The position numbers were made by a program, and so were the translations under genes. 37,835 nucleotides of DNA from contig QIFG01000042.1 of NCBI GenBank assembly GCA_003228735.1, forward strand, positions 1 through 37,835. Direction: 5' to 3'. The notes under the pieces were generated by a model. That model was not told where the DNA came from. It was given only the letters and a program-made list of their open reading frames with translations, and did no database searches. Below are positions 33,235 through 34,406 of the stretch, piece after piece (position 1 is the first letter of the stretch; every line of letters starts with the position of its first letter). This DNA is from Zetaproteobacteria bacterium (GTDB lineage Bacteria; Pseudomonadota; Zetaproteobacteria; Mariprofundales; Mariprofundaceae).

Positions 33235-33612
33235 AAGCTACCAACCATATTGACGCGAAACCTGAATCGGGACACTGTTTCTCCATTCCATGTTTGCAGT
33301 TTAATCTGGAATATGGATAAACCAATGTCCACCTATGGGAGAAGAATTTTTCCAGTGGAGTTAAGATGACAATAACGCAACCACATAAGCTTGGCCCCAG
33401 CATGTTCAAGCAGGTCGCTTAAGGGGATGGCAATGCGCGAAACAAGACCTGGCCCCTCTCCGTGCTTGCATGGCCCCTCTCCGTGCTTGCAGGCCGGTTA
33501 GCTCTACGTTAGACGGGAACATACAGACATACAACTGTATGCCCTTCTCGCAGGTTATCGCCAATGCCGTTAGATTTATAAACCGATATCTATCAGATAG
33601 GAGCGTTCAGAA
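33235..33612. other. Intergenic accessory region with tandem repeat and attC-like half site
   Basis: A 378-bp stretch without a recognised gene. A tiny frame, 33366-33422 (MTITQPHKLGPSMFKQVA), is not identifiable. A 21-bp tandem repeat lies at 33450-33491. GTTAGAC at 33508-33514 fits the integron core GTTRRRY and ends a block GGTTAGCTCTACGTTAGAC, but the matching left arm is missing. A second GTTRRRY (GTTAGAT) is at 33569-33575. A hairpin CATACA-N10-TGTATG sits at about 33521-33542. SD AGGAG at 33599-33603 belongs to the following gene. Confidence 0.35.
33450..33491. repeat. Perfect 21-bp tandem duplication
   Basis: The unit at 33450-33470, starting TGGCCCCTCTCCG, is repeated exactly at 33471-33491. 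Two units only. Probably replication slippage in the accessory region before the channel-like gene. Confidence 0.85.
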
Positions 33613-34110
33613 TTGACAAAGAAGAATAAACGCCTATCAAGGGGAAGTAGAAAGTTCATCCGAGATATTGTTGCGCATACTCCGATCCTGAAGTTGACCT
33701 TTTTATTAGGCATTTCATGGATGCTTTTTGCTGCTGGGTTGTATTTTTCTGAACGTGGAGCAGACGGCACAACGATAACGTCATACGGAAAAGCCTTGTA
33801 TTGGGGTATAGCGGCTTTTTCCACTGCTGGCATTGCTGATATGCCCGTAAATGGAATATCGGAATTAATTGGTGCGATATGGATCGTCCTCGGATCTATG
33901 CTCTTCTTTGGTGCAATTGTTGCTACGATCACTGCGTACTTTATGCGTCCATTGCATCGCCCATCAAAGCAAATTATAGATACTATTGAATACAACCTTG
34001 AACAACTTGATGATTTGTCCATAGAAGAGCTGGAACTTCTCAAAGAGACAACCGATTCCCTCATAGAACACGTGGAACGTTTGAAAACAGCGGAAAAAGA
34101 GAAGCGATAG
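33613..34110 (+). CDS. Two-TM channel-like membrane protein with altered selectivity filter
   Basis: A 165-aa protein resembling the pore domain of potassium channels (Ion_trans_2). TM1 lies at residues about 25-47 (LKLTFLLGISWMLFAAGLYF), the pore helix and filter at about 60-80 (ALYWGIAAFSTAGIADMPVN), and TM2 at about 83-110. The canonical filter TVGYGD is replaced by TAGIAD (T71-D76), so potassium selectivity is unlikely. A C-terminal helix (about 118-160, rich in E/L/K) is predicted to be a coiled coil. The start is TTG 33613 with AGGAG at 33599-33603. It lies between an attC-like half site and a full attC-like hairpin and may be a gene cassette. Base composition is more AT-rich than its neighbours, consistent with transfer. 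Confidence 0.7.
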   Translation: MTKKNKRLSRGSRKFIRDIVAHTPILKLTFLLGISWMLFAAGLYFSERGADGTTITSYGKALYWGIAAFSTAGIADMPVNGISELIGAIWIVLGSMLFFGAIVATITAYFMRPLHRPSKQIIDTIEYNLEQLDDLSIEELELLKETTDSLIEHVERLKTAEKEKR

Positions 34111-34185
34111 GTTCCAAGATTACGGATAACGTGAGATAAAGTTACTGTTGCAAGTTGCTAATAGCGATACAAATAAAAAAGTAAA

Positions 34186-34287
34186 TCTAACAAGGCAAAT
34201 CCAGCCGCCCACAAAAGTGGAGCACCTCCTCAGTTTTATTCAAGGCCATACAGCCGCTTTTGTGGGCGGCTGATTTACGGCGCTAGA
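34186..34287 (+). other. attC-like recombination site (integron cassette boundary)
   Basis: The 102-bp segment begins TCTAACAA (R'' RYYYAAC) and ends CGCTAGA (R', one base off GTTAGA). Between them are perfect complementary arms of 15 bp: AGCCGCCCACAAAAG (34203-34217) and CTTTTGTGGGCGGCT (34257-34271). Pairing continues outward through AAATC/GATTT with one unpaired C at 34202, like the extrahelical base of attC sites. It sits 75 bp after the stop of the channel-like gene and 8 bp before the next frame's start, as cassette sites do. The imperfect R' core makes this tentative; a terminator or small MITE is the alternative. Confidence 0.5.
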
Positions 34288-34295
34288 AGGAAAAT

Positions 34296-34373
34296 ATGGC
34301 AATCAATGAGTTTGAAGAAAAACGGTGTGAAAGGTTTGTCGTACAATTCATGGCCAAACACAGGCCGGGATAA
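34296..34373 (+). pseudogene. Truncated start of a DUF3024-like cassette gene
   Basis: A 25-codon frame: MAINEFEEKRCERFVVQFMA then KHRPG and a TAA. The pattern MA..EFE.KRCE..V..F..K.RP matches the N terminus of DUF3024 proteins, a small family often found in integron cassettes. After RP the family continues for about 90 more residues, which are absent here. It begins 8 bp after the attC-like site, with AGAAGGAA just before the ATG. The match is from memory of the family pattern, not a search. Confidence 0.45.
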
Positions 34374-34406
34374 GACCTGTGGTCTTCCACCAGAGCTAAC
34401 CCGGAA

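What the first reader, a model, noticed from the sequence alone, without database searches (positions are those of the whole stretch)
33790..33850. Potassium-channel fold with filter TAGIAD instead of TVGYGD
The 165-aa protein has TM1, a pore helix and TM2 in the right order and spacing, but the selectivity filter residues are changed at V, Y and G positions (T71-A-G-I-A-D76). The Asp is kept. It may be a non-selective or non-conducting pore, possibly toxic or stress-related if carried on a cassette. The long charged C-terminal helix would set the oligomer.
Basis: partly seen in the sequence, partly recalled or inferred. Interest (0 to 1): 0.55.

Follow-up and report, generated by a model that had tools for sequence, protein, structure and literature searches.

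The report
Conserved channel family with TAGIA filter
The gene encodes a small potassium-channel-like membrane pore whose ion-sorting motif is not the usual TVGYG but TAGIA, and this odd motif is strictly kept in a large, apparently uncharacterised family of bacterial channels, so it looks like a working alternative design and not a damaged copy.

Summary
ORF 33613-34110 (+, TTG start, 165 aa) has TM1, pore helix, filter T71-A-G-I-A-D76 and TM2. A predicted monomer matches KcsA-type pores (VIA Z 12.8 over 92 residues). It is not a decayed TVGYG gene. Relatives at 55-83% identity occur in at least 95 places in one-genome-per-species contigs, mostly Gammaproteobacteria. Filter-independent samples keep STAGIA in 30 of 30 loci and in all 10 intact copies found in 369 genomes; D76 is rarely N or A. 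Against three near relatives dN is 0.09-0.13 and dS 0.6-0.9. Scores fall from 260 to 39.8 bits (apart from one broken copy, 101) before canonical GYGD channels appear: a discrete family. Best reading: a homotetrameric 2TM cation channel keeping T-x-G but with a rebuilt outer filter, hence weakly or non-selective; selectivity is inferred, not shown. Here the gene sits in a 1.17-kb low-GC insertion between genes adjacent in 11 of 24 relatives, beside an attC-like site; that context is local, not a family trait, and nothing supports a toxin. Closest precedents: NaK, NaKTs, NirBac, and Trk/Ktr for a single-glycine filter.

The parts
33613..34110 (+). 165-aa two-TM channel protein, TTG start
   Evidence: aligned to ATG of L012
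33823..33840 (+). filter T71-A-G-I-A-D76
   Evidence: translation; column counts
33682..33753 (+). TM1, residues 24-47
   Evidence: AF2 helix
33784..33819 (+). pore helix, residues 58-69
   Evidence: AF2 helix
33853..33954 (+). TM2, residues 81-114, with invariant W90, G94-S95, F98-F99-G100
33961..34104 (+). conserved C-terminal two-helix segment, residues 117-164 (IIDTIEYNLEQL...)
33235..34406 (.). foreign insertion of about 1.17 kb, low GC, between a dinG-like helicase gene and an oppF-like ABC gene (names by eye)
   Evidence: the two genes are directly adjacent in 11 of 24 relatives; GC about 0.42-0.46 in its middle against about 0.55-0.63 around; gene GC3 0.41 against 0.68-0.76 in three neighbours
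34185..34289 (+). attC-like site: RYYYAAC core ATCTAAC at 34185, 19-nt arms 34202-34220 / 34254-34272, right core read by eye as GCTAGAA from 34282 (the script picked a G at 34286)
   Evidence: (z -4.6)
33569..33575 (+). possible left cassette core GTTAGAT (7 of 7 complementary to 34185 ATCTAAC); alternative GTTAGAC at 33508
   Evidence: similarity to L012 begins about here
34296..34373 (+). 25-codon ORF, probably the truncated start of a DUF3024 gene (next cassette)
   Evidence: weak: plasmid hit E 0.8 at the start of a DUF3024 CDS; no Pfam match

Best explanation
It is a functional member of a previously uncharacterised, discrete family of KcsA-type two-transmembrane tetrameric cation channels whose selectivity filter is fixed as S-T-A-G-I-A-(D). 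Shown: the predicted fold, the fixed filter, purifying selection, separation from TVGYGD channels. Inferred: four subunits assemble around a pore; T71-A72-G73 backbone carbonyls form the inner half of the filter (S3/S4-like sites), while I74-A75 in place of Y-G, and the one-residue shorter D-x-P loop, rebuild the outer half, so that the S1/S2 sites needed for strong K+ selectivity are lost and the channel passes monovalent cations with weak or no selectivity, as in NaK; D76 would line the outer mouth. The conserved C-terminal helices would form a cytoplasmic gate or bundle. In this genome the gene arrived on a 1.17-kb insertion that looks like a relic of integron cassettes.
For: Fold: profile to KcsA E 6e-9; Foldseek TMt mostly 0.7-0.8 for KcsA pore rows; VIA Z 12.8. 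Family: 95 relatives among 163 pattern hits in genome contigs, 80 kept; 11 of 369 sampled genomes at 101-303 bits (the 101 is a broken copy; the rest 260 or more), next match 39.8 bits, and the 14 weaker matches L112-L125 all carry T-V/I-GYGD. Filter: STAGIA in 30 of 30 loci that match the filter-independent scan pattern (the 30 include the window's own copy and duplicates) and in 10 of 10 intact copies (8 D, 1 N, 1 A). Selection: window against L011, L012, L014 dN 0.10, 0.087, 0.127 and dS 0.94, 0.60, 0.85. Filter shape: the AF2 model puts a short helical turn at 73-76 while a canonical TVGYGD control folded the same way has coil throughout 58-69. Precedent: NaK keeps only S3/S4 and is non-selective (start of abstract of PMC9822992); NaKTs and NirBac lack TxGYG and are non-selective (PMC5052707, PMC4607889).
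Against: No conduction or selectivity data. The AF2 model is a monomer; the filter block has pLDDT about 78 in the model and 79 in the control, so the shape difference is weak. Trk/Ktr/HKT transporters carry K+ with only the first glycine per loop (passages of PMC9898762), so loss of the second glycine need not mean loss of selectivity. 55 of the 85 loci match only the pattern FSTAGIAD, itself a search pattern, so invariance in A3 is partly ascertainment. The profile was built from that same alignment.
Confidence: 0.6

Rival explanations
1. A K+-preferring channel with a short, single-glycine filter that works like one loop of Trk/Ktr/HKT: the T-A-G-I stretch gives one or two K+ sites and the second glycine is not needed.
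For: Trk loops carry only the glycine equivalent to the first G of GYG yet transport K+ (PMC9898762); 1 of 80 members matches Pfam TrkH at E 9e-4; T and first G are invariant.
Against: Trk/Ktr proteins have four loops per chain, this has one; 79 of 80 members do not match TrkH at E 0.01; the pore matches KcsA-type channels.
Confidence: 0.2
2. A divalent-permeable or Ca2+-gated cation channel: the filter turn and the D76 ring bind Ca2+ or other divalent ions.
For: D76 is kept in 79 of 80 A3 rows; the AF2 filter has a helical turn, loosely like the helix-turn Ca2+ site of NaKTs; P-type ATPases lie within 2 kb in 7 of 80 loci, 5 of them judged type II by motif (one checked against NCBIfam).
Against: D76 is N in L108 and A in L085/L109, and canonical K+ channels keep this Asp too; the ATPase link is mixed (two copper-like) and in few loci.
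Confidence: 0.1
3. A non-conducting or regulatory subunit that assembles with another channel.
For: The filter departs from TxGYG; small size.
Against: No recurrent partner gene across lineages; pore helix, filter and TM2 hold most of the invariant columns, more than assembly alone would seem to need.
Confidence: 0.08
4. A toxin or stress factor carried on a mobile cassette.
For: Insertion and attC-like site in this genome.
Against: No cassette signal in the 80 related loci beyond shuffles; same neighbours kept in four Shewanella loci; low dN against dS in all 11 pairs measured.
Confidence: 0.02

Closest known systems
KcsA and other TVGYG(D) K+ channels (Pfam Ion_trans_2 / Ion_trans)
   Same: TM1, pore helix, filter loop, TM2; T and first G of the filter; Asp after the filter; cytoplasmic helices after TM2
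   Different: V, Y and second G replaced (TAGIA); one residue fewer before the Pro; Ala at the pore-helix position of KcsA E71 (numbering recalled); discrete family far apart in score
NaK (TVGDG), non-selective 2TM channel
   Same: small 2TM pore; inner half T-x-G of the filter kept, outer half changed (start of abstract)
   Different: NaK keeps the second glycine; TAGIA is not TVGDG; grouping with NaK was not tested
NaKTs of Tsukamurella (LPMGNGPLSP filter)
   Same: 2TM channel with non-canonical filter; helix-turn at the filter
   Different: different filter; its authors found no other channel with a similar sequence, whereas TAGIA marks a family of at least 95 loci
NirBac channels
   Same: K+-channel relatives with unique filters and non-selective flux
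   Different: NirBac has a Kir cytoplasmic domain and is described from three genes and close strains; its filters are unlike TAGIA
Trk/Ktr/HKT transporters
   Same: only the first glycine of GYG kept per pore loop
   Different: four loops in one chain; no Pfam TrkH match at E 0.01 in 79 of 80 members

Membership tests
K+-selective channels (TxGYG signature) | filter TxG(Y/F/L)G | tested here: not met
   TAGIA in window and in every intact member examined
K+-selective channels (TxGYG signature) | K+ over Na+ selectivity | not testable with these tools
   needs flux or electrophysiology
Two-TM P-loop tetrameric cation channels | TM1 - pore helix - filter - TM2 fold | tested here: met
   AF2 helices, KcsA VIA Z 12.8, rmsd 2.8 over 92 residues; Pfam Ion_trans at E 0.01 in 77 of 80 members, window 26.1 bits against cut-off 25
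Two-TM P-loop tetrameric cation channels | homotetramer around a central pore | not testable with these tools
   only monomers could be predicted
Pfam Ion_trans_2 (PF07885) | score at or above gathering cut-off | tested here: not met
   window 13.3 bits against 22.5; 56 of 80 members match at E 0.01, cut-off not checked for them
NaK-type non-selective channels | outer filter sites lost, non-selective conduction | not testable with these tools
   inferred from sequence only
Trk/Ktr/HKT (SKT) transporters | four pore loops in one chain | tested here: not met
   165 aa with one loop; one of 80 members reaches TrkH at E 0.01
Integron gene cassette | attC site: R''/R' cores and bulged stem | tested here: inconclusive
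   R'' ATCTAAC, 95% complementary 19-nt arms, fold z -4.6; right core imperfect, left core ambiguous
Integron gene cassette | integron integrase (intI) in the genome | tested here: not met
   TIGR02249: no match over cut-off in the own genome, best piece 77 bits against 265; genome 95.6% complete, and pieces are scored apart; intI may have been lost or lie elsewhere

The most novel reading that the evidence does not exclude
TAGIA(D) is a new, evolutionarily stable kind of ion filter in the tetrameric channel superfamily: a short filter with a turn in place of the outer GYG strand, with its own ion preference, spread across several bacterial phyla and moved between lineages.
Probability: 0.4. 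Interest if true: 0.72.

Novelty: new variant of a known kind. Interest (0 to 1): 0.52.

Why it matters
The non-canonical filters in bacterial channels that I found described are one-offs (NaKTs) or a few strains (NirBac). Here a non-GYG filter is fixed over dozens of lineages with the rest of the pore equally fixed, which offers a natural series to ask what the second glycine and the tyrosine do, what ion such a filter passes, and why so many bacteria keep it. The protein is 165 aa and has homologs in named cultured species (Shewanella canadensis, Psychromonas aquimarina, Thiohalophilus thiocyanatoxydans, Aestuariibacter salexigens), so flux assays are straightforward.

Tried and rejected
Decayed TVGYG gene: rejected (relatives share TAGIA; dN well below dS). 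Family carried on integron cassettes in general: not supported; a strict attC scan of 80 loci gave 1 hit (8 in shuffled sequence) and a relaxed cassette scan 1 of 80 (0-1 in three shuffles). The strict scan also misses the window's own site and the relaxed scan misses the C1 site, so this negative is limited. Conserved operon partner: none beyond lineage-specific neighbours; the largest cluster, 9 loci, I take to be antisense ORFs of the channel gene itself, judged from positions. Phage or plasmid carriage: viral-contig scans found no relative; plasmids and phages gave only generic channels; the insertion has no DNA match in plasmids. Rfam: nothing. Sigma-70 promoter scan: nothing. Toxin reading: no support.

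Dropped rows: L063 was left out of A3 as a near copy of L055; A3 is the window plus 79 of the 80 loci. L001 and L006-L009 were left out of A3 and of the neighbour and cassette counts (L001 is the window itself, L007 and L008 look like L089 and L068, L006 and L009 came from another tool). In the sample L111 is broken (stops inside) and lacks the filter part. Several loci look like the same genes as loci (for example L101 and L058, L109 and L085), so the two samples are not independent.

Literature: searches (open-licence PMC only) showed no paper on this family or filter in their listings; subscription papers are not covered. One search was made for Trk/Ktr.

Full report
Observation. The ORF at 33613-34110 on the + strand encodes 165 residues from a TTG start; the aligned position in two near relatives is ATG. 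TAGIAD lies at 33823-33840. Pfam gives Ion_trans just above its cut-off (26.1 against 25 bits) and Ion_trans_2 below its own; NCBIfam gives no good match. By sequence the best solved relatives are Shaker and KcsA. AF2 on an alignment of 80 family members gives mean pLDDT 84.2 and pTM 0.58, with TM1 24-47, pore helix 58-69, TM2 81-114 and two C-terminal helices. Foldseek and VIA-align place it with K+ channel pores, KcsA at or near the top.

A discrete family with a fixed filter. In the own genome there is one copy, and none in the other 77 genomes of its class at E 1e-8. One other of 398 sampled genomes of the phylum and, counting that genome again, four of 394 of one order had close relatives (57-67% identity), all with TAGIAD; a fifth match, 32% identical, was a canonical TVGYGD channel. 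A scan of one-genome-per-species contigs found 95 relatives, 80 kept, from Gammaproteobacteria mainly, with Desulfuromonadales, Nitrospirota, Planctomycetota (Scalindua), Alphaproteobacteria and others. Because one of the two scan patterns was the filter itself, I counted apart the loci that match the other pattern: 30 of 85 loci (the 80, the window's copy and four), all STAGIA, 28 of them FSTAGIAD, one ALSTAGIAD (L082), one FSTAGIAAM (L085). A profile search of 369 genomes of the class to which the first close relative (G271) belongs found 11 members at 101-303 bits and then nothing until 39.8 bits; of the 11, eight have STAGIAD, one STAGIAN, one STAGIAA, and one is broken and lacks that part, and all 14 weaker matches carry TVGYGD or TIGYGD. 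Columns 70-75 are invariant in A3, as are Y63-W64, P78, W90, G94-S95, F98-F99-G100 and T107. Against near relatives dN is 0.09-0.15 and dS 0.6-1.8 (four pairs). The gene is therefore under purifying selection and not a ruin.

How it may work. KcsA-type filters bind K+ with the carbonyls of T-V-G-Y-G (established knowledge). Here T, first G and the following Asp stay; V, Y and second G become A, I and A, and the loop to the Pro is one residue shorter (alignment). In NaK only the inner sites S3 and S4 exist and the channel is non-selective (start of abstract PMC9822992). By that logic the TAGIA filter keeps the inner half and rebuilds the outer one; I infer weak or no selectivity among monovalent cations. 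The AF2 model has a short helical turn at 73-76 where a canonical control folded from 49 TVGYGD fragments has none; with filter pLDDT near 78-79 and a monomer only, this is a hint. [quoted passage not shown] Nothing here decides between them.

Context in this genome. In 11 of 24 relatives in which dinG was found and its flanks examined, dinG and the oppF-like ABC gene are next to each other with some tens of bases between; in the window 1172 bases (33235-34406) separate them. In the other 13 the ABC gene was not seen within the flank held (some contigs end there). The stretch is low in GC. Downstream of the channel gene lies ATCTAAC, then two 19-nt arms, 95% complementary, 33 nt apart, folding at z -4.6, as expected of an attC site of a gene cassette; a matching core GTTAGAT lies at 33569, about 40 nt before the start codon, and similarity to L012 begins about there. 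L012 carries the same GTTAGAT without an attC-like site downstream, so that core may also be an ordinary upstream sequence. A 25-codon ORF at 34296 resembles the start of a DUF3024 protein (E 0.8). A second lone attC-like sequence lies in contig C1 at 85318-85388 (fold z -1.9). No intI was found over cut-off. I read the insertion as the relic of a cassette array, with moderate confidence. In a quick tree of the family the window sits in a supported clade (SH-aLRT 100) of 13 rows, 11 of them Gammaproteobacteria, which fits gain by transfer. The 80 related loci show no such flanks beyond chance, so the cassette is a local vehicle.

Known and new. NirBac (PMC4607889, parts 1-2 of 4 read) and NaKTs (PMC5052707, parts 1-2 of 7 read) show that channels without TxGYG can assemble and conduct non-selectively. 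The NaKTs authors report no other channel with a similar filter. A review of K+ channel pores calls TxVG(Y/F/L)G obligatory for K+ channel filters (PMC12332018, passages). The family here differs in being large and uniform. I found no paper that names it (open-licence PMC only). By the membership test it is a two-TM P-loop channel by predicted fold, not a TxGYG K+ channel by filter; whether it is non-selective is untested.

Noticed in passing
L042, L062, L066, L078, L081, L083, L084: P-type cation ATPases (found by DKTGT motif) lie within 2 kb of the channel gene in 7 of 80 loci and none further out; five look like type II (Ca2+-like), two copper-like (L083 and L042 checked, L083).
   Followed up: partly
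L040, L051, L059, L070: Four Shewanella loci share the same neighbours on both sides (amidophosphoribosyltransferase-like upstream, topoisomerase-like downstream, names by eye), so the channel is a stable chromosomal gene there.
   Followed up: partly
L013: A contig labelled Halobacteria archaeon carries a channel that groups with a gammaproteobacterial one in the tree; probably a binning error, or a transfer.
   Followed up: no
L100:5319-5389 (own contig C1): Lone attC-like sequence next to a 146-aa PD-(D/E)XK-like nuclease ORF (weak Pfam match), some 2 kb from a tyrosine-integrase-like gene (name by eye): another possible stray cassette in the same genome.
   Followed up: partly
33450-33491: Perfect tandem duplication of 21 bases just left of the possible cassette cores.
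   Followed up: no
L111: A broken copy of the channel gene with three stop codons inside.
   Followed up: no
L015, L055, L063: A gene of one blast cluster lies upstream of the channel (-103 in two near-identical loci, -1765 in L015); Pfam Pro_CA carbonic anhydrase for L055.
   Followed up: no
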